A DNA stretch of 64,000 bases, taken from assembly GCA_021201235.1 (NCBI GenBank), contig JAJQFI010000024.1, forward strand, positions 186,001-250,000. Direction: 5' to 3'. The notes beneath the pieces are model-generated. The model was not told where the DNA came from, made no database searches, and saw nothing but the letters and a program-made list of their open reading frames with translations. Numbering within the stretch: the stretch's first letter is position 1; every line of letters begins with the position of its first letter. Both the position numbers and the translations under genes were made by a program. Shown one piece after another: positions 37,045-55,035 of the stretch. Source of the stretch: Oscillospiraceae bacterium (lineage in GTDB: Bacteria; Bacillota; Clostridia; Oscillospirales; Ruminococcaceae).

Positions 37045-37100
37045 GTGTTTTTGCGAAATTTCTGTTCGTGTTCACAAAAATAATTTGAAAGAGGTGCCTT

Positions 37101-37523: not shown

Positions 37524-37571
37524 GATTCTTCTACTACATGGTATTATTTTCTCAGAGACGGAGGTGGAACG

Positions 37572-38081: not shown

Positions 38082-38133
38082 TGAGGAGCTATCACGCAAA
38101 GAACCGCAACTCGCAGATTGGAGGACATAAGGC

Positions 38134-39146: not shown

Positions 39147-39188
39147 GAATAGTAAGCACAGCCGGTGTTGCCACACTCGGCGATTTTC

Positions 39189-39242
39189 GATTAAGGAAAC
39201 CCTGCCCTTAATCTTTAATTTTGCTTGTTGGGATAGTCCCAA
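39189..39242. other. Candidate transfer origin (oriT) of the first mobilization module
   Basis: Just upstream of mobC lie GATTAAGG/CCTTAATC (39189-39213, 8-bp arms) and TTGGGA-TAG-TCCCAA (39228-39242). Paired hairpins directly ahead of MobC/relaxase genes are where oriT is normally found. The nick site is not identified. Confidence 0.45.
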
Positions 39243-39270
39243 ACCCTTTTTATTTTTGTGAGAGGATAGG

Positions 39271-39606
39271 ATGCTTATGGTGAACAGGACGAGACCGATT
39301 GTGCTTCGTCTTGCAGTTACAGAAGATGAAAAGAAACTCATCGAGAGCAAGATGCAGCAACTCGGAACGAAAAACTTTGGAGCTTATGCACGGAAAATGT
39401 TGATTGACGGCTATATCATAAAAGTAGATTATACCGAGCAGAAAAAGCTTGCAGCGGCGGTCAGCAATGTTGCTTCAAACATCAATCAGGTTTGCAAGCG
39501 CATCAACTCGACTGGGCATTTTTACGAAGACGACGTTACAGAATTGAAAGAGAGACAAAAGGAAATATGGCAGTTACTAAAATCAAGCCAATCCAAGGAA
39601 CTGTAG
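39271..39606 (+). CDS. MobC-like relaxosome accessory protein (first)
   Basis: The 111-residue protein has an N-terminal ribbon-helix-helix (RPIVLRLAVTEDEKKLIESKMQQLGTKNFGAYARKML). The MobC core AAAVSNVASNINQVCKRINSTGHFYEDDVTEL follows. MobC proteins bind oriT and help the relaxase melt and nick it. GAGG lies ahead of ATG 39271. It overlaps the relaxase start by 40 bp. Confidence 0.85.
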   Translation: MLMVNRTRPIVLRLAVTEDEKKLIESKMQQLGTKNFGAYARKMLIDGYIIKVDYTEQKKLAAAVSNVASNINQVCKRINSTGHFYEDDVTELKERQKEIWQLLKSSQSKEL

Positions 39607-40930
39607 ACAAGGCGATTGCATACATAACCCTGAGAAAACTGATGATACGGTTCTTGTATCATCGTTCGGCTGTGCAGCTGCGGATAGTGCTGCCAATGAA
39701 TTTGAATGGACAAGAAATCTTGCCGAGCAACGTGGAGCAATACCTCCAAAAGTAATTGCGAGGCATCTAATTCAGTCATTCGATGTGGGAGAGGTTTCGC
39801 CGGAGGTTGCACATGAAATCGGCAAGCAATTTGCAGACGAGTTGCTGAAAGGAAAGCATGAATATGTAATCGCCACTCACATAGACAAGGGTCATTACCA
39901 CAATCATATTATCTTCAATGCCGTCAACTTTGTAGATTACCATTACTACAGAAGCAACAAGCGAACATACCAAGAGTTGAGGCAACTTAGTGATGATATT
40001 TGCAAGGAGCATGGGCTGTCTGTTATTCCTTCGTCACAAAGTAAAGGCATGGAATACAAGGAATATTCTGAAGCAAAGAAAGGCACGAGCTGGAAGCAAA
40101 AGCTCAAGCAAACGATTGACCGACTGGTCATCACTGCGAAAGATTACGATGAGTTTTTGAAGCTCATGCAGGAAGCCGGGTATGAAGCTAAGCCCGGCAA
40201 ATACATTTCATTCCGAGCCGAGGGGCAAGAGCGTTTTACCCGTGCAAAAACCATCGGCGAGAATTACACCGAGGAGCGCATCAAGGAACGCATTCAAGGA
40301 CGTAATCCCAAAAAGCAAAGACAGCTCACGGAACGAAAAGGCATCTCTCTTATTATCGACATTGAGAACAGCATCAAGGCTCAGGAAAGCAAGGGTTATG
40401 AACACTGGGCGAAGATAAATAATCTCAAGGAAGCTGCCAAAACTCTCAACTATCTCACTGAGAATAATCTTCTTCAGTATTCAGATCTTGAAGCTAAAGC
40501 GAATGACATCCATGGTTCTTATGACCGCACCGGCGAGGAGCTGAAAAGAGTTGAAGCGAGGCTCCGTGAAGTTCAACCACTCATCAAGAATATCGGAAAT
40601 TACAGGCAGCTCAAGCCAATCTATGATGACTACCAGAAGTCAAAAAATAAGCCCGACTTCCGGGCAAAGCATGAAGCCGAGCTTGTCATTTTTGAAACAG
40701 CAAAAAGTTCGCTCCTCGCCACTCAAGGGAGCGAAAAGCTTCCAAGCCTGAAAGCTCTCCACGCCGAGAAGAAGCAGCTTCTTGAAGAACAGCAGAGGCT
40801 CTACGATGAAAGAGCCAAGCTTAAAAAGCAGGTCAAGGAGATTGATACTATCAAGGCAAATGTTGATAGCTATCTGAGTCCAAATGCTTCTCAGGTGAGG
40901 GAGAGCAAGAGGAGTAGCGAGTTGGAATAA
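39567..40930 (+). pseudogene. Relaxase/mobilization nuclease, frameshifted near the N terminus
   Basis: The gene starts MAVTKIKPIQGTVDKAIAYIT at ATG 39567. After about 20 codons (39,627-39,631) the frame is lost; one base or four are missing where ITNPEKT is expected. The other frame continues NPEKTDDTVLVSSFGCA through GEVSPEVAHEIGKQFADELL, HEYVIATHIDKGHYHNHIIFNAVN with the HUH-type metal histidines, and a long coiled-coil C terminus. The full length of about 455 codons fits MOBP-type relaxases. As it stands the product would lack the nucleophile-side N terminus. Confidence 0.8.
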
Positions 40931-40940
40931 TATTGCGATG

Positions 40941-40976
40941 AAAAGCACTGATCACATCTTTGGGTCAGTGCTTTTT
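40941..40976 (+). terminator. Terminator after the relaxase gene
   Basis: AAAAGCACTGA and TCAGTGCTTTTT pair over 11 bp with a 13-base loop. Confidence 0.85.
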
Positions 40977-41079
40977 CAAAATATCAAAGGCTTGATTTGT
41001 TATGAGCATTGTTGTATAACAATAGGGAATAGACTTGTATGAATTCATTTACGGTAAAAACATAGTTGATAATGATTCA

Positions 41080-41160: not shown

Positions 41161-41589
41161 TTATCGAATACTATCCGTATCGTTAGCATCCACTCTAAAA
41201 TTCAATCTAATTCTCTTCACCACATCACTCGGATTCCTCATAACGCATATCAGGACATCCTCTGTTGTTATAGCCTTTAAGCCCTTTTCCTCAGCACGCC
41301 TTTCTGCCTGACCAATCATATCTTGCATATAAAGCGAATCATCGAAAGAATTCTTGCTAGTTCGGATATACGCCATCAGTGTCTTTCTGGCTGCCTCGAA
41401 ATCATCTATGTAAGTCCCAAGAAGCCATTCCAAGTGGGAAAGCTCAGCACTCTTGTCGGAATCAGGTGTGTCTCGGATTTTGTCGATGAGGGCAACGATA
41501 AACCTTTCTTCTGTGAACATTCCCAGAGGAGGACTCGCTATTTCGATTGCTCTCTTTTCTATTTCTTTCAGCAAAAAGCTATTGTCCAT
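41161..41589 (-). CDS. Uncharacterised protein with weak Clp-N-like C terminus
   Basis: The 142-residue protein starts MDNSFLLKEIEKRAIE at ATG 41589 behind AGGAGGA. It is entirely helical by eye. The C-terminal TTEDVLICVMRNPSDVVKRI resembles one repeat of the Clp N-terminal domain (T-x-E-D/H-L-L-x-A-L), but a single repeat proves nothing. It lies 20 bp after the chimeric gene and may be the intact neighbour of that gene's foreign 3' half. Confidence 0.5.
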   Translation of the reverse strand: MDNSFLLKEIEKRAIEIASPPLGMFTEERFIVALIDKIRDTPDSDKSAELSHLEWLLGTYIDDFEAARKTLMAYIRTSKNSFDDSLYMQDMIGQAERRAEEKGLKAITTEDVLICVMRNPSDVVKRIRLNFRVDANDTDSIR

Positions 41590-41609
41590 ATTGAGTCCTC
41601 CTGAGTTTA

Positions 41610-42299
41610 TTACAGAGTGACAATGACATAAATAGCATAGACAATGGTAACGACCAGCAGGCATATCGCTAATGCTGTAAGAACCCAGTATGCTATCTGC
41701 AGAATCAGAGCGATGACAATCGCAATCAGACGACGGATTCCCTTGGAACCGGAATGGAGAAGTTCCATGCGATACTCCTTACTTGAGAGCCATCTCTTGA
41801 CCTCATCATTGATGCTTTCAACTCCGCACAATATACTGATAACATTCTCTCCTATGCTATTCTTGATGGGGAGAATGCTCAAGGGTGCCATTCCGAAATT
41901 AAAGAATGCGACAACGTTTGCAGTCTCGCAGAGTGAATGGTTCGTCAAGCCTATAATGCTTGCTATGTAGGCAAGAATCAGATTCATCTCTATGCCTGCA
42001 AGATAGAATTGGATGGCTCCAGCTTTTGTTGTAATCTTACCTGTTTCGTATTCACCGAAACATCCAACGGGAATAATCCGAAATAGTAGCATGCAGTTCG
42101 GAATAACCTTTTCATCTATGTACTGTGTTCGTCCGGATGCACTACCCTTCTTCCCATCAATGTATCCCATTTCGATAACATCAACTCCGGAAGCTTCCTG
42201 CGCCGCCAGTATCTTTTCCATATATACTTGTCCAAAATTAAAATCATTTACACAACCGCCATCACGCAAAGTGACGTCCAGAACCTTTAAGGAATTCAT
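41610..42299 (-). pseudogene. Chimera: aldolase N terminus fused to a membrane protein C terminus
   Basis: The first 65 or so residues (LKVLDVTLRDGGCVNDFNFG, GVDVIEMGYIDGKKGSASG) are the start of a DRE-TIM/HMG-CoA-lyase-type aldolase with the L-R-D-G-G metal motif. Such aldolases accompany cytidylyltransferases in clostridial glycan loci and are far longer. After IDEKVIPN the sequence changes to an unrelated membrane protein (about 160 residues, helices near 100-125, 135-150 and 190-229). Its GIEMNLILAYIASIIGL/FFNFGMAPLSILP part loosely resembles M50 peptidases. The join lies near 42,100. The aldolase must be inactive. Confidence 0.65.
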
Positions 42300-42330
42300 A
42301 ACTTTTCTCCTTTGCCTTTATAATCGTCCT

Positions 42331-42975
42331 CTACAACTCAATATTCAGTAAAGCTTTTGCCAAGGCAAAATCTTCCGGGTTATTAATATCCACAGCTTCT
42401 TTGAACGATACTTCTTTTACAAACGGCTTTAAGCCAATACGTCTATGGCACTTTTGATAAGCTTCCTTTGTAAACGCATATACACCGGATGTCTCACGAT
42501 ATATAGGCTTAATATTCTGACTTCTGGGAACATTGGTTGCATCGAAATTCAAAGGCTCGCCATTCTGCCAGAGATAATCCTGAATCTTTGAAGCACAGAA
42601 TGCAGAATCATATTCACCGGACACGACAGCCTCTATACATTGACGCATCGTATCTACAGTGATATACGGAGCTGTAGCATGAGCGTATACATAAATATCT
42701 GCATCCACTGTTTTCATGAAGTTATCGAATATCTGTGAGAAATTAGATGTAGGTAAATCAAGATATTCCGGTCTCTTGATGAAATTTACACCGTCAGGCA
42801 AGTACGGAATCACCGCTTCGTCGCTACAATACACATTGATGCTATCGAGCAATCCTGTTGCCTTCAAACTATCAAGCTCGTATTGAAGCAATGGCTTGTC
42901 CCCAAGCATTTTTGTGTTCTTGCCTGGGAGGCGCTCGTTATTTAATTTTATTGGCATTATTGAGACTATGTTCAT
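42331..42975 (-). CDS. Acylneuraminate cytidylyltransferase-like CMP-sugar synthetase
   Basis: The 214-residue enzyme activates a sialic-acid-like or other nonulosonic/ulosonic sugar with CTP. The nucleotide-binding start is SIMPIKLNNERLPGKNTKMLGDKPLLQYELDSL (P-loop-like R-x-P-G-K-N). YAHATAPYI and the C-terminal DINNPEDFALAKALL are typical. It overlaps the flippase stop (ATGA), supporting that the flippase gene should read to 42972. The chimeric aldolase follows 31 bp later; the two are normally a functional pair. Confidence 0.85.
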   Translation of the reverse strand: MNIVSIMPIKLNNERLPGKNTKMLGDKPLLQYELDSLKATGLLDSINVYCSDEAVIPYLPDGVNFIKRPEYLDLPTSNFSQIFDNFMKTVDADIYVYAHATAPYITVDTMRQCIEAVVSGEYDSAFCASKIQDYLWQNGEPLNFDATNVPRSQNIKPIYRETSGVYAFTKEAYQKCHRRIGLKPFVKEVSFKEAVDINNPEDFALAKALLNIEL

Positions 42976-44406
42976 TTTCTAATTTCTCCAATCAAACTTA
43001 TTATTTTCTTGTAATTCAAAACTACAGCCATGAGCAAGCAGGCTAATATTAAGTATCTTATTACAATGTGTTCATAAACCAATAGCATCAACTGACTGAA
43101 AACAACTAATGCCGCGCCAATCAAAAAAAACTGCTTTAGTGTTAAATACCTTTTTTCCATCAATGTTTTCTTTAGCAACCTTTTTGACAAAGAAAGCATG
43201 AGAAACTGCAAAAAGAATATAACAAATCAGCGTTGTATATCCAGCAGCGATATAACCAAATAGGCGAATTCCAAAATAGTTCAAAATGATATTCAGAATA
43301 GCTCCTGAAATTGAAGCGTACGTTATGTATGTATTCTTCATATAGTAAAATTCAACGTTTGCGAAAATCTGAAACGCAAAATTAAAATATAGGCTTGCCG
43401 CTACAGATGGAATAATCCAAATAGCATCCTTATATGCACTTCCACCGAAAATAATTACACACTCATGAGCAAATGCAACAAGTGCCATTATCATAACTGC
43501 AGTAAACGCAAATATTGGTGTAGTAACCTTCGGAATGTCGTCATATTCCTCTTTCTTCAATTTCCCATATATCCAAGGCGCGAAGCTTTGATTGATTGCA
43601 TTTGTGACAACATTCAAGACCATCGATGCCGAGTAGGCTAAACTATATATTCCAGCCTCAGAACTTCCAATCATCCTTTTTATCATAATTCGATCTGCTT
43701 GATTCAGTATGATGCCAGACAAATAATGAGGAATAAGAGGAACGTTAAACTTTAAGCCAAATCTCCAGAAATCCCTGTTATAAAACGAATGACCTTTAAA
43801 AACATTGTGGAGATACAGAGGAGAACATAAAATCACCACAAACAATGCGTTCAAAAAGACTTTTGTCTCATATGCAACATCAGATGGAGCAATCAAAATG
43901 CCTATGATAGCGGCTATGGACGGAACAGACGCGACTAATAACGTATATATAATCAGTTTTTTATACCGATACTCGAAACGTTCTCTTGCAGACCAAAATG
44001 ACAGAGCAGAATGAAACAGTATCTCAACAAACATGACCGAAACCATCCAGGAATCCATTTCAAAAATGTTATTCCAGAAGTTACGGGTCAGTAAATAGAT
44101 AATATACAGGATGCCAGTAGTAGCTGTTACCAGACCTTGCATAGAAGACAAATACTCATCCCTGCGGTCTTCATAGCGAACCATGCCATTATTGAACCCG
44201 CCATAAAACAGATTCAGAGTGAGGAATATTGTCAAGATGTTGTACCAAGACAAATATGTGCTTACATCGCCATATTGCTCTGTGGTCAACAATCTGGTGA
44301 ATATCGGTGTCGTTATAAACTGTATTCCCTTTTGAAGAATACCGCAAATTGCGAACCATATAGCTGCTTTTGCAGGAGTACTCATTTTTTTATACTTATC
44401 TAACAT
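42972..44406 (-). pseudogene. wzx: Wzx-type polysaccharide flippase, frameshifted at a T8 tract
   Basis: The main frame gives 14-helix flippase features from MLDKYKKMSTPAKAAIWFAICGILQKG through NVPLIPHYLSGIILNQADRIMI to HAFFVKKVAKENIDGKKV. At 43123-43130 the coding strand has eight Ts and the frame ends after a junk tail (FDWRGISC). With seven Ts it continues VFLIGAALVVFSQLM ... IGEIRK to a stop overlapping the next gene. Total length 1435 (one more than a multiple of 3) fits a single inserted T. The loss is only the last two helices, so partial function is possible. Reversible slippage, decay or assembly error cannot be told apart here. Confidence 0.8.
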
Positions 44407-45624
44407 TACCTTTTCCTAAGAATAATCTTTACTTTATGATGTTCACTCGACGTAAGTCTTAACGTATCGGCATAGTATGTAATCATTATGAAGAAATACA
44501 TTACAACATCCGTTTTTGCAGATTCCATTGTAAAAAGGATTGCATACCCTAGGATAGCAAAAAGCAAAGCTTTTGCTTGTATTGAGCCACGAATTGTTTC
44601 TAAACGAGCCGAGAGTACTTTAAAAATATACACAAATAATAAAAATAATATAACGCCCCCAACATACAACAAATCGAGGTACTTATTATGGGCTTGTGAT
44701 ATGTCTGCCCAAGACAGCTGTGAAATTAATGATGTGGTTCCATTCCCCATATTGGACTTCTAAGAAATAAGCTTATGGCTGCTGTCCATATTGCAGTTCT
44801 CCCTGAGAAGTCTGCAGACTTTTCAAACAGCCTTTGTACGATTTGATTAACCATTTCTAATTGCACTCCAGTTATAAGTATGAAACTAACCATAACCGAG
44901 CAAAACAGCATTGTGACGGGATTAAATAACTTAGGGAAATTCTTCTCTCTCAAAAACAACAATAGGATAGAAACCACAAGCACAGCAACAGTTGTCGTAG
45001 ATGAGCCCACCAGAAAACCAGAAATCACAGCTAAAAGTGTCACCACTATAGTTCTTACGCTAATGCAATTCTTATTTTCTAAATCTCGAAGCGGTGCAAG
45101 ACCAATATAAGGCAAGAAATAATAAATATGTCGATTTTTGTAACCAAGTAGATAATTTTCTGTTCTACCAACTGCAGTAACTGTATCTCTATACATTCCC
45201 GAAGGAAATACTATTATTGACATGAAGTTCAGTACTATATATATTCCGAAAATCAATACTACTATATTTATCAAATCTCTGACCAAATCATAACCAGCAT
45301 AGACCTCTACAAGAAGGCAAATTCCACAAGTGATAACAACATGAGCCAAATCTTTTGTTATACTTACCCCATTAATCAGATCAGCCACCAAATAAAACAA
45401 TTGGAATAAAACAATCGCAATGGTTATTTTAGAAACATGGATTTTACATTTAATCGCCGCTAAGGCTATTACAAATAATCCAATATATTGAAATACTGTC
45501 AATAGTCCCGAAACTACCTTCCACCCCCCGCAGCATATGTTGCTAAATCAGCTATACCACTAGGCTTAAGAAGACCAAGAATAATTATTGTTATAAAAGC
45601 CTTATTTTCTAATATTTTTTTCAT
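44406..45624 (-). pseudogene. O-antigen/EPS polymerase (Wzy) with two frameshifts
   Basis: The gene starts MKKILENKAFITIIILGLLKPSGI at ATG 45624. A G6 tract (45524-45529) ends the frame; seven Gs would join it to GWKVVSGLLTVFQYIG. The middle part (10 helices, YLLGYKNRHIYYF) fails again at a G4 run (44745-44748), where one more G gives PIWGNGTTSL and then QAHNKYLDLLYVGG, the conserved late loop. The total length agrees with two single-base losses. It is a tandem paralogue of the intact gene upstream (shared MGYKN, RTAIW/RTLIW and HNKYLDLL motifs). It overlaps the flippase start by 1 bp. Confidence 0.8.
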
Positions 45625-45647
45625 TGCTCACAATATCCTTGTAATAA

Positions 45648-46883
45648 TTAATTCAGCCGCAATTTAATTCTAATTCTTTTTTTACTCGATGACGGATTTT
45701 TTTCAAATGAGTTCTCCATAGCTGGCATCATATACATAATTGACATAAACATCAATGAAAAGACATCATCCCTTGCGCCTTCCATTAAGTAAAGAATCCC
45801 ATATCCGATTGAACAAATCAAGAACCAATTTTTTATCTTATAATGTATGTAATACTTTTCAAGGGCATTACTTGCAAGAAGTATCATAAAGACCCAACAG
45901 ATAAAGAGTACAACTCCGCCCACAACGAGTAAATCAAGATACTTATTGTGATATTGAGATAGATTGCCTATCTCTACTCTTGTGCTATTTCCAACACCCA
46001 CGATGGGATTACTTAAAAACTTCTCTATTCCTTCTGCCCAAATCAAGGTTCTCCTCGATGCAGACGCATCCTTCTCAAACAATTGCATTAAAACTTCGGA
46101 GAAATTGCTCAAGAAAGAGAAGAAAATAACCAATATGCTGATAAATATAGACGTCGCATAAACCCAAACTAGTCTTACTTTGGAGAAAAACTCTCTATTT
46201 ATAAATAGTATCAAGCAGAAGGCAACTGCAACAATAGCAACAATAGATGTTGTAGAACCGGTCAAAATCAACGATACCGAGATTAACGCTATCATCACAT
46301 ATGTGCCAATGCTAATTTCTTCTCTTTTCAGCAAATTGCTCAATCCAGCTGAAATTAAGTAAGCCATATAAGAATATATAAAATTATTCTTATATCCCAT
46401 CAGCCAGTTCGAAGACAAACCGTTGCTATTAATATACATACCGTTTGGATACGCAATTATTGTAATAAGATTGAATATAATAATTACAGATAAAATTGTC
46501 GCCATTGATGACAATAGCTGGGCAATCTCATCGTTTTTAATATAAATATAGACCCAGGTGGTAATTCCACAAATCGATATTGCAAGCGTCAATGTAGACG
46601 TAACATCTGAATTATTATTTAGAAGATCGCTCAAAACAAGCAACGCCCCGTATATAAACCCTGGCAACAAATATTTAAATGCAGTTCTTGACAACATTTT
46701 AGAGGACAAATAAACAAAGGCAAAAGCAATAGACAATCCTTTAAAAAACAAAAAGATCAAATTGATTGTAGTCCAAATTCCACCGTTTGCCGTTGCCATG
46801 CCGCCTATTCCAATAGGTCTGAGATAGCCAATTAGTATCATGAAGATAAAAAATTTATTAGTAAGTATATTCAATCGTCTCAC
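45648..46883 (-). CDS. wzy: O-antigen/EPS polymerase (Wzy), intact copy
   Basis: The 411-residue protein has about 11 membrane helices and a large periplasm-side loop with RTLIWAEGIEKFLSNPIVGVGNSTR and YHNKYLDLLVVGGV, the pattern of Wzy/WaaL polymerases. It joins exported repeat units into polysaccharide. The GTG start at 46883 overlaps the preceding gene's TGA (GTGA); an upstream TTG is less likely. It is a diverged paralogue of the broken gene downstream, at clearly under half identity by eye. Confidence 0.8.
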   Translation of the reverse strand: MRRLNILTNKFFIFMILIGYLRPIGIGGMATANGGIWTTINLIFLFFKGLSIAFAFVYLSSKMLSRTAFKYLLPGFIYGALLVLSDLLNNNSDVTSTLTLAISICGITTWVYIYIKNDEIAQLLSSMATILSVIIIFNLITIIAYPNGMYINSNGLSSNWLMGYKNNFIYSYMAYLISAGLSNLLKREEISIGTYVMIALISVSLILTGSTTSIVAIVAVAFCLILFINREFFSKVRLVWVYATSIFISILVIFFSFLSNFSEVLMQLFEKDASASRRTLIWAEGIEKFLSNPIVGVGNSTRVEIGNLSQYHNKYLDLLVVGGVVLFICWVFMILLASNALEKYYIHYKIKNWFLICSIGYGILYLMEGARDDVFSLMFMSIMYMMPAMENSFEKNPSSSKKRIRIKLRLN

Positions 46884-47975
46884 TTCAACGTCCCTATCTT
46901 TCCCAAATAACAATCCAGCTCATCTTCACTTTCAGGAATAAAGAAACGGCTCTTATCGTTATAACATTCTTTAAATTGTTGATAAAATCGATCCGTTTCT
47001 TCCAGATTATCTATTTTCCCTTTTACAATTTTATATAAAAGAATAACCCTTGGCTCCTGAGACCAAAACAGTTTAGGGGTAATAACGCTTGTTGAATCCC
47101 AAGCAATTAAAATCTTGCTTGTTATATCCTGCATTGAGGCTATAAGTTCAAAAGGTGCATTCCCTTCAATATATTTTCTATTTTTATATTTATCCCTTCC
47201 ATCTCTTGGATGTCGCTTGAATACTACATCTCCATTCTCTGCAGTTTTAACTTTTTCATACAGTCCTTCAAGCCTTTTATTTGCCGTATCAGACAAATAA
47301 TCATCTGCCTTGCATTCGATAACAACTGTATTCTGCTTTATCATGTTTGCATTCGTGATATTATAGAATTTCAAAAGAACTTCTCTATTCTTTTTTCGAA
47401 ATGGGATGCAATTTTTCAATGTCGAAATCTGAGCCGTTAAGTCTCTCGAACAAGTCTGGCATATAAAGCAAACACGTCACATTTATTTTCCCAATGCTCA
47501 ACTCAACAATTTTTCTGAAATACTTAGCGAATCCATTTTTTGCCAAACAATGGTTTACATTCCGGTATGTCATCACTCCGTCATCAAAAAGATAAAATTT
47601 TGAATTTCAATTTTTCTTTGCATAGAAGATGATTTCGACGAAAGAATGTGCGGTAGCAAAAAAAATAGCATCATACTTTTTGTTCGGTACAAGAACAGTC
47701 TCTGCAGTTTTATCATACATAATATACTTTTGTATTTCTTCAAGATGAGTTACAATCTTCGGAGAAGAAGCTGTCTTCTTTCGTATTTGACCTATCTCGT
47801 ATGCTTTAACATTTTCAAATATACCCGTTTCTTTTACCTTTTCAGCGAGATTCTTATATCCAGTGAAATTTCCCAAAATATATAGGTCGTATGTGTACTC
47901 ATGAAGTTGTTCGGTTATCGCTATTGCGGATAATAATTGAAACGGTGTTGATACCAAAACAGCCGCATTTTCCAT
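46880..47975 (-). pseudogene. Sialyltransferase-like glycosyltransferase (GT52/polysialyltransferase type), broken
   Basis: ATG 47975 behind GAGGTGA opens MENAAVLVSTPFQLLSAIA. At 47607-47609 an in-frame TGA follows FYAKKN, after which the same frame continues KFYLFDDGV. At an A6 run (47391-47396) the frame slips; with five As it would continue KNREVLLKFYN ... FKRHPRD to 46880. The opening FQLL and the late K-R-H-P motif are landmarks of CMP-sialic-acid-using transferases of this class. Total length fits one inserted base. Two independent lesions make decay more likely than slippage for this gene. Confidence 0.65.
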
Positions 47976-48031
47976 AATCTTCACCTCACAAATCACATCA
48001 ATACGATGCCAATTCGGCATCAGCATATATC

Positions 48032-48937
48032 TTACTGATTTGACTTAGGTTTTTTCGATAGGATATTTTCTAATATATCTCTATCAAAAACCTCAAGTTT
48101 TCCGCCTCTCGTCAGATTTTTAATGATAATCCCATGCTCGTCACAATAGTTCTTTGCAAATTTATAACCATTTTCGTTAGTATACTTAAGCAGATAGCAT
48201 ACATTCTTAGGATCAGTATAATCTCCTCCAGAGAAATGTGTTTTTTCTTCTCCGGTATAGTGCTTTTTCCCTTTTCGGTCTTTATAGTAAGGGTAGCTAA
48301 AATCAACACCGAGCAAATATATTTCTTTAAACCCCATATAAATAGCCAACTGGATTGCTGAAAAAGTAACCGTCAGTGCATTTCCGAATTTTACGTCGCA
48401 ATTTTCACTCACTTTACATCCTTTATAATCAAACATATTTATGATGTATTCACGATTGAAAAGAGCATAAACGACATCTTCTTGACTGCCTAATTCTTTG
48501 TACGCTGACCAATTTATAAAGGATTTTTGCGCATTAATTTTATTCAAGTCTAAACCAATCTCACTTACGATAGAACCTAAATCCATGCATAAATAGTATG
48601 TCGGTCTCCATATCGTTCTATCATATATCGTATATATTTTATTTGCCGCAAATGTGTATTCTGATGCAATTCTATCCAAATCCTCACCAGTTAAACTAGG
48701 ACCATTTCCAATAATAAAACATCTTTCTCCCCTATGACAGTCTTTATATTCCCTAATCATTTCTGGGTACCCTGATTTCTTGTAACTCCTACTCAATGTC
48801 AACTTGCGTAAGGCTCCAATAGGGAAAACCAACGTTCGAAACAACTTACTGTTCTGAATATCCCTTGAGAATAGAAAATCAGATATCAATCTAGTCTGTT
48901 TCAATCTGCCTAATAAACCCACATTAAATCCCACCAA
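48032..48937 (-). CDS. DUF115/MptE-like putative glycosyltransferase
   Basis: The 301-residue protein has the Rossmann-type start RCFIIGNGPSL. KIYTIYDRTIWRPTYYLCMD and GNALTVTFSAIQLAIYMGFKEIYLLGVDFSY follow, as in DUF115 proteins and the similarly folded Campylobacter Cst sialyltransferases. In glycan loci such proteins act as transferases. The exact start is unsure: TTG 48937 or GTG 48922, the latter better spaced from GGTGGG. Strongly A/T-rich codon use, unlike the host genes before 33 kb. Confidence 0.7.
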   Translation of the reverse strand: MVGFNVGLLGRLKQTRLISDFLFSRDIQNSKLFRTLVFPIGALRKLTLSRSYKKSGYPEMIREYKDCHRGERCFIIGNGPSLTGEDLDRIASEYTFAANKIYTIYDRTIWRPTYYLCMDLGSIVSEIGLDLNKINAQKSFINWSAYKELGSQEDVVYALFNREYIINMFDYKGCKVSENCDVKFGNALTVTFSAIQLAIYMGFKEIYLLGVDFSYPYYKDRKGKKHYTGEEKTHFSGGDYTDPKNVCYLLKYTNENGYKFAKNYCDEHGIIIKNLTRGGKLEVFDRDILENILSKKPKSNQ

Positions 48938-48984
48938 ACACTTTTATAATTCTCATCGTGCATCACAGCAAATCCAATTTCTAA

Positions 48985-49493
48985 TCACATATTGATTCTT
49001 CGCTTTTTCTTCAATTCTTCTGTATACCCTATGCAACGTGCCGGTACCCCCCCACAATCTCGCCAGATGGTACATCCCTTTGCACAACTGCGCCAGCCGC
49101 AACAACCACATTATCCCCAATAGATACACCAGGAAGGATTAGCGCATTTTGTCCAACAAAAACGTTGTTACCAATAGAAATCCTACCGATATTGTGAGAA
49201 TAGTTGTGTTCGAAATTATCAGATGCACTCAATACTCTTGCAATTTCATCGTGCGTTACAAGAACGACTCCTGAGGCAATAACTGTATTATTCCCGATAG
49301 AAATCATATCTCCCTCAGTTGGAATTGTAACAGGCGTATACCAAATGTTATCTCCAATGTGTGAAAAGTATTTAGTACGACGTAGCAAGTCAGCTCTCTT
49401 AGAAGGATTTATAAATAGCAATCGAAATCTTATCAGCTTACGTCTAAACAAATATATTTTCCTTCGAATACTCAATTCTTTCACCTTCGCCAA
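48985..49493 (-). pseudogene. Hexapeptide-repeat acetyltransferase, frame set by a poly-G tract
   Basis: The gene starts MAKVKELSIRRKIYLFRR and runs through left-handed beta-helix repeats (ISIGNNTVIASGVVLVTHDE, ISIGNNVFVGQNALILPGVSIGDNVVVAAGAVVQRD). It then reaches GEIVGG, where the family continues VPAR. Here seven Gs (plus-strand C7, 49047-49053) give GYRHVA and a stop at 49029. Eight Gs would give GGVPARCIGYTEELKKK and a stop at 48985. Only the last 20 residues depend on the tract, so the short form may still work. It is a likely O- or N-acetyltransferase for a glycan sugar. Confidence 0.8.
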
Positions 49494-49511
49494 AAACGTC
49501 TTAGTTATTTC

Positions 49512-50573
49512 TCACGCTCCGTGAACTTCCTGCTCCTTCAGCTTAATAAACAACCCCGGCATTATTTTTCTCACTATGCTGATTCCAGAACCGATTGCCA
49601 TGCTTAAAGTAACGTTTTTCCAACGCATAGGAGCAACCATGATTTTCATCTTTTTTGACATTGTCTTTGCCTTCTTTAAAGCATCAACTGTTACTGGGTC
49701 ATTTACTATTTCTTTAACCTTTTCTCTACGCTCTGCCTTAGATATTTTATTATTATCAACCAGTTCCTGCACACACTGTGCGAGACGTCCTGCGTAATAA
49801 GAACTCACTGCATCTATACTTGCAGAATCATGCAGTCCCCAATGGTCATACAACTGAATGATGTGTTCGTAATGTTCTTTTCTTTTTTCAAACATATGTA
49901 TATCCGAATAATTAATCATGGTCTCTGAGCCTTTTCTTGAACGATACCAGTGATAGTCCGTAGCAGAACTGAGAACCACATTTTTGCAACCCATCAGATA
50001 ATCCATGCAGAAGTGATGATCATCCCATTTGGTATTTCGGAAGCGAAGATTCTTACGTTTAATATTCTCCATCAAAAATAATTTATTCCAAGGCAATGAC
50101 AAAACTGAGTTATTCAAATAATGATATGCGTCCAAACGAAATTCTTCAATATTTGAATAGGTCTTATCTGGACATTTTGTCTTATAAGTAACATCGCGAC
50201 CGTCCTGATAATATTCCATGCAGAAGCCTTCAACAATCAAATCGGCATTATTACTTTCTGCCAGGTTATACATCTTTTCAAGCATATCAGACTCAATCCA
50301 GTCATCTGAATCAATAAAATAGACGTATTTCCCGCTTGCCAAATCTAACGCAGCATTTCTGGCTGCCGGTGCGCCTTGATTCTTTTGGTGTATGACAGTC
50401 ATCCTTGAATCTTTAACGGCATACTCATCACATATTTTTCCACTGTTATCTGGTGAACCATCATCAACAGCGAAGAATTCAAAATCCGTCAACGTCTGCC
50501 CCAATACACTTTCAATCGTCTTTGAAACATATTCTTCGACCTTATACACAGGCATAATTATTGAGATTTTCAT
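49512..50573 (-). CDS. Family 2 glycosyltransferase
   Basis: The 353-residue GT-A enzyme starts MKISIIMPVYKVEEYVSKTIESV. FEFFAVDDGSPDNS binds the nucleotide, YVYFIDSDDWIESDML is the D-x-D metal site, and a C-terminal membrane-associated basic helix follows. It transfers a sugar to the growing repeat unit at the inner membrane. It is intact, 21 bp downstream of the epimerase gene. Donor and acceptor unknown. Confidence 0.9.
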   Translation of the reverse strand: MKISIIMPVYKVEEYVSKTIESVLGQTLTDFEFFAVDDGSPDNSGKICDEYAVKDSRMTVIHQKNQGAPAARNAALDLASGKYVYFIDSDDWIESDMLEKMYNLAESNNADLIVEGFCMEYYQDGRDVTYKTKCPDKTYSNIEEFRLDAYHYLNNSVLSLPWNKLFLMENIKRKNLRFRNTKWDDHHFCMDYLMGCKNVVLSSATDYHWYRSRKGSETMINYSDIHMFEKRKEHYEHIIQLYDHWGLHDSASIDAVSSYYAGRLAQCVQELVDNNKISKAERREKVKEIVNDPVTVDALKKAKTMSKKMKIMVAPMRWKNVTLSMAIGSGISIVRKIMPGLFIKLKEQEVHGA

Positions 50574-50594
50574 ACTATATCTCCTTGTAGATTC

Positions 50595-51599
50595 TTATTC
50601 CAAGCACTCTCCGTTGCAATCCTCAAACCAATCCTTAAAGCTCTCCTCAAGCGTATAATGGAACTTATACCCACTCTCACTCAGCTTCACGCCGCTGATA
50701 TTGGTCGAGACCATAAGCTTCTTGACTCGTGCCGGATGGATGCCGACTTTCTTGCCGCCGATGGGACCGAGAATTCTCGCCGCGGTCATAAGCAAACCGC
50801 CGGGGATGAGTGGGATATGCCGCTTCATGCCGGTTGCTTTTTGCATCGTCTCACAGATTTGCTGAATGTTGTATGCAGGCTCGAAGGTGCAGTTGTATAG
50901 GTCGATGCCGGGGAAGCTGTTGTCAATCATGCGATACTTGAAGAACAGACAGAGCTCTTTGACGTAAGCGCAAGCCTTGATGGTGTCTTTTCTGCCGGTG
51001 TAGACGAAGTAGTGACCTTTCTGACCTTTGTAAAGACGGGTCATGTTGCCGTGTTCGCCTTTACCATAGACGATGCCGGGGCGGACGATTGTCAGCTCTC
51101 TCGACTTGTCCTGAACCTGCCACTTTTCGTGAATCTTCTCGGCGACGAGCTTACTGATGCCGTAAGCCGATTCGGGCGTTGGCAACGTATCCTCAAACTT
51201 CTCGTCCTCACCGGGACCATATGGAGCGATTGAACTTGTGAACAGAAGCTTTTTGATTCCATACTTCTCGGCGAAAGCAGTCACGTTCTCTGCACCACGG
51301 ATATTCGTCTCGAAATACTCGTAGTCCTTGTGTCCGGGAGTTCTGTGAACAGCCGCCAGATTGAAGATGATGTCATCGGGAGTCGGCGTGAAATCGAAGT
51401 CGATTGGCTTGCGGACGTCCAGACGGACATACTCGACACCCTCGTTTTTCTCGACGATTCCGGGAACAACTCCCTCCTCGCCGGGCATGACGATGTCCAG
51501 GTCGTAGATTTTGTCGCCCTGCTTCACGCAGTCGGATTTTAACAGGTGTATAAGGTGCGTTCCGATGAAGCTGGAACCGCCGAAGATTATGTAGTTCAT
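50595..51599 (-). CDS. NAD-dependent epimerase/dehydratase
   Basis: The 334-residue extended short-chain dehydrogenase has FGGSSFIGTHLIHLL (G-x-x-x-x-x-G NAD site), FTSSIAPYG and catalytic Y-x-x-x-K in YGISKLVAEKI. It acts on a nucleotide sugar, with specificity unknown. GC content and codon use are higher than in the genes from 42 to 50 kb and like the core chromosome. It sits between glf and the glycosyltransferase. Confidence 0.85.
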   Translation of the reverse strand: MNYIIFGGSSFIGTHLIHLLKSDCVKQGDKIYDLDIVMPGEEGVVPGIVEKNEGVEYVRLDVRKPIDFDFTPTPDDIIFNLAAVHRTPGHKDYEYFETNIRGAENVTAFAEKYGIKKLLFTSSIAPYGPGEDEKFEDTLPTPESAYGISKLVAEKIHEKWQVQDKSRELTIVRPGIVYGKGEHGNMTRLYKGQKGHYFVYTGRKDTIKACAYVKELCLFFKYRMIDNSFPGIDLYNCTFEPAYNIQQICETMQKATGMKRHIPLIPGGLLMTAARILGPIGGKKVGIHPARVKKLMVSTNISGVKLSESGYKFHYTLEESFKDWFEDCNGECLE

Positions 51600-51678
51600 G
51601 AATGGTTTCCTTCCTTTACCTTTTGCAACTAAGAAATGCTATAGGAATCACTTCGATTTTCCATTTATCTATTTAATG

Positions 51679-52785
51679 TTAAATGCTTTCGCACCTCTCC
51701 AGTGCCGCCGCAATCGCCTGATCCATATCGTAATACTTATACTCGCCGAGGCGTCCGCCGAAGATGACATTGGTCTCCTGCTCTGCGAGCTCTTTGTACT
51801 GCTGATACAGCTTGCCGTTCTTCTCGTCATTAACGGGGTAATAAGGCTCATCGCCGGGCTTCCACTCGGAGCTGTATTCACGGCTGATGACGGTTTTTGG
51901 CAGGTCGTTGCCGTTCTCATCCTTGCCAAACTCGAACCACTTGTGCTCTATAATTCTCGTCCAAGGCGTCTCACGGTCGGTGTAATTGACAGCCGCATTG
52001 CCCTGGAAGTTCGGAATGTCGAGCAGTTCCGTCTCGAAACGAACCGAGCGGTACTCAAGATAACCGAGCTTATAGCCGAAGTAGGCATCAATCGGACCGG
52101 TGTACACAACCTTCCCTGCCAGAGCATCCAACTCAGCCTTATTCTCCAAATAGTCGGTATTAAGACGAACTTCAATGCCGTCAAGAAGATTCTCAATCAG
52201 CTTCGTGTAGCCGCCAATCGGGATGCCCTGATAGAGAGCGTTGAAGTAGTTGTTGTCGAAGGTCAGGCGCACCGGAAGACGCTTGATGATGAACGACGGG
52301 AGGTCTTTGCAATCTCTGCCCCACTGCTTCTCGGTGTAGCCCTTGACAAGCTTTTCATAGACATCTCTGCCAACGAGCGAAATTGCCTGTTCTTCGAGGT
52401 TCTGCGGCTCGTGAGTTATCTCCGCCCTCTGCTCGTTTATCTTAGCCTCGGCTTCTTCGGGAGTGACAACGCCCCACATCTTGTTGAACGTGTACATATT
52501 GAACGGCATCGAGTAAAGCTCGCCCTTGTAGTTCGCAACGGGAGAGTTGGTGAAGCGGTTGAACTCTGCAAATTGGTTCACATAGTCCCAGACCTTCTTG
52601 TTATTGGTGTGGAAGATGTGCGCGCCATACTTGTGGACGTTGATGCCCTCGATTTTCTCCGTGTAGACATTGCCGCCGATGTTCGGACGCTTGTCCACAA
52701 CAAGGACGGACTTGCCCTTTGCCTTCGCCTCGTGTGCGAAGATTGCTCCGTATAAGCCGGAGCCGACTATTAGGTAGTTGTACAT
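51679..52785 (-). CDS. glf: UDP-galactopyranose mutase
   Basis: The flavoenzyme converts UDP-Galp to UDP-Galf for cell-surface galactofuranose. The FAD motif is LIVGSGLYGAIFAHEA with VLVVDKRPNIGGNVYT. HKYGAHIFHTNNKKVW, KQWGRDCKDLP and the late EYKYYDMDQ are all conserved. The start MYNYLIVGSG at 52785 is preferred; an upstream ATG at 52806 adds seven residues. It is the first gene of the minus-strand glycan locus. Base composition is higher in GC than in the central genes. Confidence 0.95.
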   Translation of the reverse strand: MYNYLIVGSGLYGAIFAHEAKAKGKSVLVVDKRPNIGGNVYTEKIEGINVHKYGAHIFHTNNKKVWDYVNQFAEFNRFTNSPVANYKGELYSMPFNMYTFNKMWGVVTPEEAEAKINEQRAEITHEPQNLEEQAISLVGRDVYEKLVKGYTEKQWGRDCKDLPSFIIKRLPVRLTFDNNYFNALYQGIPIGGYTKLIENLLDGIEVRLNTDYLENKAELDALAGKVVYTGPIDAYFGYKLGYLEYRSVRFETELLDIPNFQGNAAVNYTDRETPWTRIIEHKWFEFGKDENGNDLPKTVISREYSSEWKPGDEPYYPVNDEKNGKLYQQYKELAEQETNVIFGGRLGEYKYYDMDQAIAAALERCESI

Positions 52786-52841
52786 ACTTACACTGACCTT
52801 CCACATTTGTATCTTGTATATAACAGTAAACAGTGCTAAAT

Positions 52842-52895
52842 AACTTTGTCTTATCGCCGCGACGTCAAGTGACGTCTGTGAGACAGAACAAAGTT
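52842..52895. repeat. Nested inverted repeats upstream of glf
   Basis: AACTTTGT (52842-52849) pairs with ACAAAGTT (52888-52895), enclosing GACGTCA-AG-TGACGTC (52861-52876). It lies in a 500-bp gene-free stretch between the divergent glf and AbiE genes and may be an operator, a leader structure or an element end. Confidence 0.5.
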
Positions 52896-53241
52896 TCCAT
52901 TATTAAAATTCACCTTTTGTATCGAGAAGAAAAAGCAAAAAAATAAGCCCTTTTAAAAGGACTTTAAATCAATCAGTATTCTTGTCTCTAAGTCATAGAG
53001 CTTAAACTTAGGGCGCAATCGTACTAAGTTGGAGATAGATTGCAATGAACAAATAGGTTTTCGCTCAGATTACCTTGTCCTATTATTATCATAATATGCT
53101 TGCCCAATCATGTACTCCAATCAAGCCATTATCAAGTTCACTGTTATGGTAATTTCGTTTTTAAAAATCATCAAAATCATAGTATACACTCTGATTTCGT
53201 GGGATTTTAAAAATTGTCGTTTCTAAATTTGCACAAAATCA
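52896..53241. other. Gene-free A/T-rich stretch
   Basis: No coding frame, RNA gene or clear repeat was recognised between the nested repeat and the AbiE promoter. Confidence 0.4.
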
Positions 53242-53291: not shown

Positions 53292-54056
53292 ATGGATCTG
53301 TATAAAGAATTATCAGCCTTGCGTTGCTTTACCTACAGTGACATGATCCAGCTTACTGATTCGGCAAGTTCAGCACAGTGGCAGATAAGAGACTACCTCG
53401 AAAAAGGATACATCGAAAGAGTGCGGCGGAATTTGTATGCCGTCATAAGCATGGAGACGGAGCAACCGATACCAAGCAGATTCCAAATCGCTTCTCGCAT
53501 AACCGATGATGCCTGCGTGTCTCACCACAGTGCTTTTGAATTCTACGGATATGCAAATCAGGTATTTTATGACGTGTATTTCACAACAGAGAAGACCGTG
53601 CTACCGTTCGACTACGACGGCGTGCATTATCAGCCTGTATTATGGCGAGATAACACAGGTATAGTAGAAACGAATACCGGAGTGAGGGTTACTTCTCTTG
53701 AACGAACCGTAATAGATAGCATAGCTGACTTTACAAAAATCGGTGGATTGGAAGAATTACTGCGTTGCCTCGCTCTTATACCTTCCCTTGATGAAAATAA
53801 GCTTCTTGAAGCATTGGAAATGCACAATCGGAGTCAGCTTTATCAGAAAGCGGGGTATATTCTCGAAGCTTGTGCGGAAGATTTGGCACTGTCGGATGAG
53901 TTCTTTTCTAAATGTGTGGCTAAATCATCCTCCAGTAAAACCTATCTGTTTGACAAACAGGATGATTTCGTGTTTCATAAAAAGTGGCGACTGTATGCGC
54001 CGGCAGACTTGAAGAAAATTATCGATAAGGGAGTAGACGATTATGATGCAGTTTGA
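53292..54056 (+). CDS. AbiEi-type antitoxin
   Basis: The 254-residue protein begins with a winged helix (LRCFTYSDMIQLTDSASSAQWQIRDYLEKGYIERVRRNLYAV). The AbiEi core follows (SRITDDACVSHHSAFEFYGYANQVFYDVYFTT, TSLERTVIDSIADFTKIGGLEE). AbiEi proteins repress their own operon and neutralise the AbiEii toxin in type IV toxin-antitoxin abortive-infection systems. GGAGGG precedes the ATG. It overlaps the toxin gene by 14 bp. Confidence 0.88.
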   Translation: MDLYKELSALRCFTYSDMIQLTDSASSAQWQIRDYLEKGYIERVRRNLYAVISMETEQPIPSRFQIASRITDDACVSHHSAFEFYGYANQVFYDVYFTTEKTVLPFDYDGVHYQPVLWRDNTGIVETNTGVRVTSLERTVIDSIADFTKIGGLEELLRCLALIPSLDENKLLEALEMHNRSQLYQKAGYILEACAEDLALSDEFFSKCVAKSSSSKTYLFDKQDDFVFHKKWRLYAPADLKKIIDKGVDDYDAV

Positions 54057-54996
54057 CCGCATATCGCTTGGCAGACAGGCAAAGGAATTGGGATTTGTCA
54101 GGGACACTTTTGAGAAGGTATGCAGACTTACGGATGTTCTCTCTTTCATGGAAAGCGACAAGTTGCTGTCTGAGAGTCTTGCATTGAAAGGCGGAACGGC
54201 TATAAATCTGACTGTATTTAATCTGCCACGTCTATCTGTAGATATTGACCTGGATTATTCCCATAACGTACCGAGAGAAACTATGCTTCAGGAGCGGGAA
54301 CAAATTAACAGCCGTATTCAAAAATACATGGTTGCTTCGGGATATGTTCTAAGCCCAAAATCAAAGCAGTACCATGCTCTGGATTCCTTTGTATATGAGT
54401 ATATCAATGCCGGTGGAATGAGAGACAACCTGAAAATCGAAATAAACTATATGCTACGGTGTCATGTGTTTCCTGCTTCTCGCAGAACTGTGAGACTGCC
54501 TTGGAGCGAAAGCGAGATTACTGTTCTTAGTGTTGATCCTATGGAAATCTTCTCAGCAAAAGTTGTCGCATTGTTCAATCGTTCAGCCGCAAGAGATTTG
54601 TACGACATTTTCAATTTGCAAAAATACAAGCTACTTGACGAGTCGCAAGAGGAGTTATTCAAGAAGTGCATCATCTTTTACTTCGCCATAGCTTCAGAAA
54701 CAGTACCAGAACACTTCGATTTCGACAAGATTGAGAAAATCTCAGCACAGAAAATAAGAACAGATTTAGTTCCAGTGCTGAGAAAAGCCGAACACTTCAA
54801 TCTTTCTGAGGCACAGGAACAAGTGGAGGGATATCTGAAAGGAATCCTTCTACCGGAGGGTGATCTGTCGTTTTGGACTGAGTTTGCAAGTGGTGAATAC
54901 AAGCCGGAATTATTGTTTGATGATACTGAGATATTGGCGAGAATTGGGCAACATCCGATGGCGGTTTGGAAATGCCGTAAGAAAACACTGAAATAG
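54043..54996 (+). CDS. AbiEii-type nucleotidyltransferase toxin
   Basis: The 317-residue protein has the AbiEii/MenT signature: LALKGGTAINLTVFNLPRLSVDIDLDY (G-G-x-A and D-x-D metal site). Then come NLKIEINYMLRC, IFSAKVVALFNRSAARDLYDIFNL. The family stops growth on phage infection, some members by adding nucleotides to tRNA. The C-terminal helical domain is complete. It carries the defence cargo between the glycan locus and the serine recombinase module. Confidence 0.9.
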   Translation: MMQFDRISLGRQAKELGFVRDTFEKVCRLTDVLSFMESDKLLSESLALKGGTAINLTVFNLPRLSVDIDLDYSHNVPRETMLQEREQINSRIQKYMVASGYVLSPKSKQYHALDSFVYEYINAGGMRDNLKIEINYMLRCHVFPASRRTVRLPWSESEITVLSVDPMEIFSAKVVALFNRSAARDLYDIFNLQKYKLLDESQEELFKKCIIFYFAIASETVPEHFDFDKIEKISAQKIRTDLVPVLRKAEHFNLSEAQEQVEGYLKGILLPEGDLSFWTEFASGEYKPELLFDDTEILARIGQHPMAVWKCRKKTLK

Positions 54997-54998
54997 AG

Positions 54999-55035
54999 AA
55001 ATAGCGGTCACATCAACGTTGACCGCTATTTTTTC
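54999..55035. terminator. Bidirectional terminator between AbiE and the recombinase operon
   Basis: AAATAGCGGTCA and TGACCGCTATTT pair over 12 bp with a 9-base loop and T/A tails on both sides. The edge of the second mobile module must lie close by. Confidence 0.88.

What the first reader, a model, noticed from the sequence alone, without database searches (positions are those of the whole stretch)
41161..52785. Glycan-export locus in which four genes hang on homopolymer tracts
Within 6 kb, flippase (T8), Wzy (G6 and G4), sialyltransferase-like gene (A6) and acetyltransferase (G7) are each out of frame by one base at or beside a mononucleotide run. In every case adding or removing one base restores a family-consistent protein, and gene lengths modulo 3 agree. 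The first 32 kb of the window show no frameshifts. Known systems: surface-glycan contingency loci switch by slippage. Competing readings: progressive decay after transfer, or homopolymer assembly errors.
Basis: partly seen in the sequence, partly recalled or inferred. Interest (0 to 1): 0.85.

Follow-up and report, generated by a model that had tools for sequence, protein, structure and literature searches.

The report
Broken glycan locus, one slippage switch
A set of genes for a sugar coat in an unnamed gut-type bacterium looks permanently damaged, but one of its broken genes carries a run of Gs of a kind that related bacteria seem to use to switch sugar-coat genes on and off.

Summary
The frame breaks are real. 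Homologs place them at or beside the T8 (flippase), G6 and G4 (second Wzy) and G7 (acetyltransferase) runs; the sialyltransferase-like break is not clearly in the A6 run. So the locus as a whole is decayed, not switching.

One tract stands out. Long G runs with flanks G[C/T]-Gn-TA[C/A] are enriched in glycan stretches of this genus: 37 runs of 7 or more Gs in 529 kb against 3 in 395 kb of housekeeping stretches, length mode 9. They cut acyltransferases, a glycosyltransferase and a dehydrogenase into out-of-frame halves in some species; similar acyltransferases are read through in others. One gene has nine Gs in one species (split) and ten in another (open). The window's acetyltransferase G7 fits this class; its other runs do not. 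Switching within a strain was not testable.

The parts
51679..52806 (-). UDP-galactopyranose mutase (Glf), intact, first gene of the operon
   Evidence: Pfam GLF E=1.7e-81; 89% DNA identity to a same-genus genome with no gaps over 51688-52782
50595..51599 (-). NAD-dependent epimerase/dehydratase, intact
   Evidence: Pfam Epimerase E=4e-21; only 3-base gaps against L169
49512..50573 (-). Family 2 glycosyltransferase, open frame of 353 codons
   Evidence: Pfam Glycos_transf_2 E=7.9e-35
49029..49493 (-). Hexapeptide-repeat acetyltransferase, open frame that loses its homologous tail at the G7 run
   Evidence: Pfam Hexapep E=3.9e-12; 5 of 5 usable homologs change frame at 49045-49055
49047..49053 (-). 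G7 tract (C7 on +) with flanks GT-G7-TAC, the genus contingency type, out of frame here
48985..49053 (-). Out-of-frame continuation carrying the GGVPA tail of the acetyltransferase
48032..48937 (-). MptE-like (DUF115) protein, intact
   Evidence: Pfam MptE-like E=1.8e-11; 3 of 3 homologs align without a lesion
46880..48026 (-). Polysialyltransferase-like gene in three open pieces: one in-frame stop and one frame change
   Evidence: Window piece matches PF07388 only weakly (E=0.047, below cut-off), but homologs L172 and L128 match it above cut-off; lesions located
47607..47609 (-). In-frame TGA in the polysialyltransferase-like gene, not reversible by slippage
   Evidence: 3 of 3 homologs align straight through it (printed)
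47391..47436 (-). Interval that most likely contains the frame change of the polysialyltransferase-like gene (A6 run at 47391-47396)
   Evidence: one of three homologs places it upstream at 47462-47465
45648..46913 (-). First Wzy-like polymerase, intact
   Evidence: Pfam Wzy_C E=1.9e-17; no lesion against its one homolog
44406..45624 (-). Second Wzy-like polymerase, broken twice
   Evidence: Frame changes at 45524-45525 and 44748-44749 against the intact neighbour; pieces match Wzy_C, the smaller one below cut-off
45524..45529 (-). G6 run at the first break of the second Wzy; flanks do not fit the genus type
42972..44406 (-). Flippase (Wzx type), last part in another frame after the T8 run 43123-43130
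   Evidence: Pfam Polysacc_synt E=7e-24
42331..42975 (-). CMP-sugar synthetase-like (CTP_transf_3), intact
   Evidence: Pfam E=9.3e-14; 2 of 2 homologs without lesion
42093..42299 (-). Remnant of an HMGL-like aldolase (about 56 of 525 residues matched)
   Evidence: intact relative L133:12246-13823 matches HMGL-like E=7.1e-22
41213..42092 (-). DNA of another locus fused in frame to the aldolase remnant
   Evidence: 87% identical, no gaps, to G002:C65; the longer protein there is shown
39567..40930 (+). Relaxase gene of the neighbouring mobilizable element, cut by a 4-base deletion near 39627 relative to relatives
   Evidence: 4 of 4 spanning relatives; Pfam Relaxase on the second piece

Best explanation
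The locus is a Wzy/Wzx-type surface-glycan operon in an unnamed Ruminococcus-like genus. In this genome it has been damaged beyond reversal by slippage: the aldolase end was cut by a rearrangement, the polysialyltransferase-like gene has a nonsense codon as well as a frame change, one Wzy is broken twice, and the flippase is broken near its end. Most of these frame changes sit at short runs because that is where replication slips, as expected of a locus no longer under selection. One lesion is different. The acetyltransferase G7 run belongs to a class of long sense-strand G runs with shared flanks (G[C/T]-Gn-TA[C/A]) found in surface-glycan genes of many genomes of the genus. In relatives such runs leave the same kinds of gene read through or cut in two. 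The likely mechanism is replication slippage that changes the run length and so switches O-acetylation and other decorations of the glycan on or off. Shown: the lesions, the enrichment, the flanks, both frame states across species, and one gene with nine Gs in one species and ten in another. Inferred: reversible switching inside a strain, loss of enzyme activity when the tail is lost, and any benefit against phages or host immunity.
For: Lesions.
Enrichment: 37 runs of G>=7 in 529,005 bases of genus glycan stretches against 3 in 394,856 bases of housekeeping stretches, Fisher p=1.2e-6. Leaving out the early stretches and the neighbours of earlier stretches, 21 in 289,257 bases (p=7.9e-6). Densities 6.81 against 0.76 per 100 kb, and 0.73 in 80 named threonine-synthase loci. 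Runs of G>=9: 22 observed, 0.2 expected from a second-order Markov model, 5 simulations.
Flanks: 32 of 36 genus glycan runs of G>=7 with both flanks held are followed by TA.
State: 8 of 15 split genes were tested; in 7 both halves match successive parts of one profile (5) or the N- and C-terminal domains of one enzyme type (2). Four acyltransferase-3 genes are read through at G9, G9, G9 and G7.
Ortholog pair: G9 in G004 (split), G10 in G011 (open to the contig end), 91.7% identity over 350 columns.
Own genome: the acetyltransferase paralog at C28:40073 is out of frame at G6 with the same flanks, and an acyltransferase-3 at C32:138649 at G8.
Against: No strain-level or read-level data, so reversibility is not shown. 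G7 is at the lower limit of the published cut-off.
Breaks at G runs are not confined to glycan genes: a prophage-type D5 helicase gene is broken at a G6 run (L303), and 3 of 17 G6 runs in housekeeping stretches were classed as split by the same rule (unchecked) against 9 of 25 in glycan stretches.
Some broken glycan genes lack the flanks: the window Wzy, the C22 flippase-like gene and the L330 split.
Ten of 37 genus runs lie in the last 30 codons of a frame, where on and off cannot be told apart without homologs, and 7 lie outside frames. One of 8 split pairs had no match in its second half.
A G run at the GGVPA motif is rare: the pattern searches matched no more often than the same pattern read backwards (33 against 41 in 31 genus genomes; 26 against 30 by my count in 396 family genomes).
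The Markov model predicts too many G>=7 runs in the controls (21.2 against 3 seen), so it is only a rough yardstick.
Confidence: 0.73

Rival explanations
1. Pure decay: every lesion, including the acetyltransferase G7, is neutral slippage or mutation in a locus that no longer matters.
For: Nonsense codon, truncated aldolase, double break in one Wzy, broken neighbouring relaxase. Frame loss at homopolymers is a common way for genes to decay (recalled). Another own-genome glycan locus also looks fragmented (L310).
Against: The excess, length mode at G9, shared flanks and both frame states of G runs in glycan genes across the genus are not expected from decay, and the window run has those flanks.
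Confidence: 0.15
2. One reading: flippase, Wzy, sialyltransferase-like gene and acetyltransferase are all slippage-switched contingency genes.
For: Breaks lie at or near runs in all four genes.
Against: In-frame TGA; two separate breaks in one Wzy; T8, A6, G6 and G4 are below published cut-offs (PMC6321876, passages); the Wzy G6 lacks the genus flanks; the terminal aldolase is truncated.
Confidence: 0.06
3. Homopolymer assembly errors in this genome.
For: Base counts in G runs are hard to call and can be wrong in records (PMC9187656, passages seen). No reads were available.
Against: Twelve own-genome G6 runs lie in frames open at least 30 codons on both sides and 250 or more in all (gene identities not checked). 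The nonsense codon, the 4-base deletion and the truncation are not homopolymer errors. The enrichment of long runs does not depend on exact counts.
Confidence: 0.06

Closest known systems
Campylobacter poly-G contingency loci (phasome) in surface-glycan genes
   Same: Poly-G runs of 7 or more, mostly in reading frames, length peak at 9, on and off states (PMC6321876, passages seen)
   Different: Different phylum; here the runs carry shared flanks G[C/T]-Gn-TA[C/A] (whether Campylobacter runs do was not checked); only comparative evidence, no switching measured
Bifidobacterium breve pilus G-tract switch
   Same: Gut commensal, intragenic G-tract whose length sets whether two frames join (PMC9187656, passages seen)
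   Different: Pilus genes rather than glycan genes; measured there by deep sequencing, not here
Phase-variable acyltransferase-3 O-acetyltransferase oafA of Haemophilus influenzae
   Same: Acyltransferase-3 gene whose expression is phase variable (PMC9558356, passages seen)
   Different: There tetranucleotide repeats, according to a reference title in that paper; here G runs; the window gene is a hexapeptide acetyltransferase
Neisseria porA-type promoter-spacer poly-G (recalled, not looked up)
   Same: Some intergenic G runs here lie between -35-like and -10-like elements
   Different: Not part of the window locus; promoter activity not tested

Membership tests
Simple-sequence (poly-G) contingency locus: window acetyltransferase | Homopolymer run of at least 7 G inside the reading frame | tested here: met
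   G7 at 49047-49053
Simple-sequence (poly-G) contingency locus: window acetyltransferase | Run type over-represented in the relevant gene class beyond chance | tested here: met
   for glycan stretches of the genus. Not met for the GGVPA-motif pattern alone, which is no commoner than its reversed control
Simple-sequence (poly-G) contingency locus: window acetyltransferase | Both frame states seen for the same tract | tested here: inconclusive
   Of 9 hexapeptide acetyltransferases noticed with a G run of 6 or more at or just before the PA tail, 3 are in frame (L225, L247, L169) and 6 out (window, L191, L238 twice, L258, L326); these are different genes, not one tract in two strains
Simple-sequence (poly-G) contingency locus: window acetyltransferase | Frequent reversible length change within a strain | not testable with these tools
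   One genome per species held, no reads
Simple-sequence contingency locus: flippase T8, Wzy G6 and G4, sialyltransferase-like A6 | Run at or above published cut-offs (G/C 7, A/T 10) | tested here: not met
   Lengths 8, 6, 4, 6; cut-offs from PMC6321876 (passages)
Simple-sequence contingency locus: sialyltransferase-like gene | No further lesion that slippage cannot reverse | tested here: not met
   In-frame TGA at 47607-47609, 3 of 3 homologs
Wzy/Wzx-dependent surface-glycan locus | Flippase, Wzy polymerase and glycosyltransferase together | tested here: met
   Pfam Polysacc_synt, Wzy_C, Glycos_transf_2
Wzy/Wzx-dependent surface-glycan locus | Priming glycosyltransferase and chain-length regulator present | not tested
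   None among the ORFs sent to Pfam in 41161-52806; the rest of the genome was not searched for them
Alpha-2,8-polysialyltransferase (PF07388) | Match above the curated cut-off | tested here: inconclusive
   Window piece 13.7 bits against a cut-off of 23.3; homologs L172 and L128 above it

The most novel reading that the evidence does not exclude
A poly-G contingency system with a common DNA signature, G[C/T]-Gn-TA[C/A], operates across surface-glycan loci of this Ruminococcus-like genus and of other Clostridia families. It switches O-acetyltransferases of two unrelated folds, glycosyltransferases, dehydrogenases and perhaps promoters. The signature appears in different genes and reading frames, so it is a DNA-level element (a preferred slip site, or a site kept by a dedicated factor), and not a by-product of protein coding.
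Probability: 0.5. Interest if true: 0.75.

Novelty: new variant of a known kind. Interest (0 to 1): 0.52.

Why it matters
Slippage switches are best known from Gram-negative pathogens (recalled). A poly-G phasome in gut-type Clostridia would mean that such commensals generate surface-glycan variants at random, which bears on phage resistance, strain persistence and immune recognition. It also gives a cheap, direct test: count tract lengths in existing metagenome reads. The shared flanks raise a question that a plain reporter assay can answer. The window locus also shows how such loci decay, and that several broken frames at runs do not by themselves mean a switch.

Tried and rejected
Dead ends. 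The two genome-contig scans named no member of the genus: the DUF115 query found nothing, and threonine synthase gave 61-69% matches to Ruminococcus-type and Clostridia records, best 80 kept of 589. The organism is therefore placed only near Ruminococcus. A viral-contig scan with the flippase found nothing. No repeat of 13 bases or more of the tRNA-Ser end was found that would mark the right end of the mobilizable element. An invertible-promoter reading of the region upstream of glf was looked at and not followed.

Rejected readings. I first leaned to plain decay after finding the in-frame TGA; the paralog broken at the same motif made me test the genus. A glycan-only rule for broken G runs was rejected because a D5 helicase gene is also broken at one. 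Translational or transcriptional slippage rescue was considered but not tested.

Counts and choices. Glycan stretches were picked from flippase, acetyltransferase, glf or polysialyltransferase hits or beside them; they hold other genes too. One search was made after I had seen tracts in some of these contigs; four of its 20 stretches lie next to earlier ones, and leaving these and the 9 early stretches out gives 21 runs in 289,257 bases. Control stretches were picked around mostly long, housekeeping-type acetyltransferase hits and have higher GC (0.498 against 0.437). One search drops one edge run (36 of 37). Split genes tested by Pfam: 5 of 6 at G>=7 and 3 of 9 at G6; for a further one only the first half was sent (L324). 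Read-through genes sent to Pfam: 7 of 10, of which 4 are acyltransferase-3 and one matched nothing. The DNA search of the genus scored only 9 candidate places per genome. The Pfam check of own-genome genes with in-frame G6 runs failed and was not repeated.

Papers. Passages were seen of PMC11868660, PMC6437147, PMC9187656, PMC9558356, PMC6321876 and PMC13317340; all others in search listings only. That I found no report of this pattern rests on the searches in an open-access library.
Full report
What was checked. The finding claims that four genes of a glycan locus at 41161-52785 are each out of frame by one base at or beside a mononucleotide run. I listed the frames, named the genes with Pfam, and placed each break by aligning homologous proteins from unnamed relatives to the window DNA with frame changes allowed.

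Gene content. On the minus strand, from 52806 downward: glf, an epimerase, a family 2 glycosyltransferase, a hexapeptide acetyltransferase, an MptE-like protein, a polysialyltransferase-like gene, two Wzy-like polymerases, a flippase, a CMP-sugar synthetase-like gene and the start of an HMGL-like aldolase. The middle of the operon has low GC (0.34-0.38). Apart from a short flippase stretch, it gave no DNA match in the 31 genus genomes searched, whereas both flanks did (only 9 candidate places per genome were scored).

Where the breaks are. For the flippase 4 of 8 homologs place it inside the run, 3 within 13 bases of it, and 1 about 70 bases away. For the acetyltransferase, 5 of 5 homologs with an open GGxPA tail agree; 5 further loci had no such frame. 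The polysialyltransferase-like break lies somewhere near 47391-47436; two of three homologs favour 47417-47423 and one 47462-47465.

The polysialyltransferase-like gene has an in-frame TGA at 47607-47609; 3 of 3 homologs align through it without a frame change there. The aldolase stops at 42092/42093. Beyond that point lies DNA 87% identical to a different locus in G002, fused in frame. A relative of the aldolase is 525 residues long and matches HMGL-like; searched against this genome's assembly it found only the 56-residue remnant. The second Wzy is broken twice. Just outside the locus, the relaxase of a mobilizable element differs from 4 of 4 spanning relatives by a 4-base deletion. Slippage at runs cannot undo the TGA, the truncation or the fusion. 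The locus as a whole is therefore decayed.

Why decay is not the whole story. The same genome carries a second hexapeptide acetyltransferase, at C28:40073, that is out of frame at a G6 run at the same motif. I listed all G runs of 6 or more in the genome: 57 overlapping matches, which are 43 distinct tracts, 11 of them 7 or longer. Eight that I could recognise sit in glycan-type genes: the window acetyltransferase and Wzy, the C28 acetyltransferase, three acyltransferase-3 genes, a FrhB-like gene and a flippase-like gene. By reading frames six of these look broken at the run; only the two window genes were tested against homologs. The FrhB-like gene and one acyltransferase-3 gene (C3:144363) are uncertain. 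Six of the eight share the flanks GT-Gn-TA; over the whole genome 10 of 43 do, some of them between genes. Against a strict glycan rule, a D5-type helicase gene is broken at a G6 run as well. Twelve other G6 runs lie in long open frames (genes not identified).

Pattern searches. A search for a G run at the GGVPA motif found further acetyltransferases of this type in G004, G021 and two other family members, but the pattern as such was not commoner than the same pattern read backwards: 33 against 41 matches in 31 genus genomes, 26 against 30 by my count in 396 family genomes. So this motif is a rare site, and the case rests on the wider test that follows. Of 9 hexapeptide acetyltransferases noticed with such a run, 3 are in frame and 6 are not.

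Genus-wide test. I took 20 further stretches near glycan genes and 20 near housekeeping genes from genus genomes and added 9 glycan stretches already held. Glycan stretches (529,005 bases) hold 62 runs of G>=6, 37 of G>=7 and 24 of G>=8; control stretches (394,856 bases) hold 20, 3 and 2. For G>=7 Fisher p is 1.2e-6. With the 9 early stretches and four neighbours of earlier stretches left out, 21 runs in 289,257 bases remain (p=7.9e-6). A second-order Markov model expects 13.2 runs of G>=7 and 0.2 of G>=9 in the glycan set (5 simulations); 37 and 22 are seen. The same model expects 21.2 and 1.8 in the controls, where 3 and 2 are seen, so it is rough. The length mode is 9. Of 36 glycan runs with both flanks held, 32 are followed by TA; the base before the run is C or T in 33, and the base before that is G in 25. 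Glycan stretches of other families of the order and class hold 11 runs (4.79 per 100 kb), 8 followed by TA; 80 named threonine-synthase loci hold 2 (0.73 per 100 kb).

On and off. By open frames alone, the 37 genus runs of G>=7 fall into 10 read through, 6 split, 10 within the last 30 codons, 4 near a start and 7 outside frames. Of the 25 G6 runs in glycan stretches 9 were classed as split, and of the 17 in controls 3 (the control ones were not checked further). I sent both halves of 8 of the 15 split glycan genes, at runs of 6 to 9 Gs, to Pfam separately. In 7 the halves fit one protein: a short-chain dehydrogenase and four acyltransferase-3 genes (successive parts of one profile), a family 4 glycosyltransferase and a FrhB-like gene (N- and C-terminal domains). 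In one the second half had no match. Four acyltransferase-3 genes are read through, at G9, G9, G9 and G7. One dehydrogenase gene has G9 in G004, where it is split, and G10 in G011, where it is open to the contig end; the two are 91.7% identical over 350 aligned columns.

Reading. The window acetyltransferase G7 has the sense strand, position and flanks of this class and a length within its range, so I take it as one member, caught out of frame. The T8, G6, G4 and A-run breaks are shorter than the cut-offs used elsewhere (G/C 7, A/T 10; PMC6321876, passages) and sit in a locus with irreversible lesions; I take them as decay. The consequence of losing the acetyltransferase tail is inferred; that the GGxPA region matters for the cofactor site is recalled, not tested.

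Limits. The genus is unnamed; only relatedness to Ruminococcus-type records at 61-69% protein identity is shown. One genome per species was available and no reads, so switching within a strain is inference. Base counts in G runs can be wrong in assemblies (PMC9187656, passages), which affects single states more than the enrichment.

Change made on checking. Confidence in the main explanation was lowered from 0.74 to 0.73, and pure decay raised from 0.14 to 0.15, because the reversed-pattern controls and the split G6 runs in control stretches had been left out.

Noticed in passing
L202 4387 (own genome C9), L301 1501 and L302 1501 (own genome C28); relatives L155, L183, L236, L314: G runs of 6-10 lie between a -35-like and a -10-like element; possible promoter-spacing switches. 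Downstream of the C9 case is an ABC transporter.
   Followed up: partly
L310 (own genome C32:130000-148000), about 8600-17350: Another glycan locus of this genome with an acyltransferase-3 out of frame at a G8 run and several gene pieces that look fragmented.
   Followed up: partly
window 33326-41019: A mobilizable element beginning in the end of tRNA-Ser, about 92-97% identical over most of its length in five same-genus genomes; its relaxase is cut here by a 4-base deletion and no right-end repeat was found.
   Followed up: partly
window 5395-7020: A secreted-type protein of about 540 codons is interrupted by one in-frame stop at 6478-6480, outside the glycan locus.
   Followed up: no
L303 1500 (own genome C28:253432): A prophage-type D5 helicase gene changes frame at a G6 run without the genus flanks.
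   Followed up: no
window 52842-52896: A 55-base stretch with an imperfect inverted repeat upstream of glf has an 89% copy at own genome C28:40686-40740, beside the other acetyltransferase.
   Followed up: no
window 53292-56677: AbiE-type toxin-antitoxin pair and a large serine recombinase next to the glycan locus, partly 81-88% identical to same-genus DNA.
   Followed up: no
L326 6665 against L123 13173-13539: A gene with a G9 run in one species aligns at 82% to a relative that has ordinary sequence in its place, which hints that such runs are gained.
   Followed up: no
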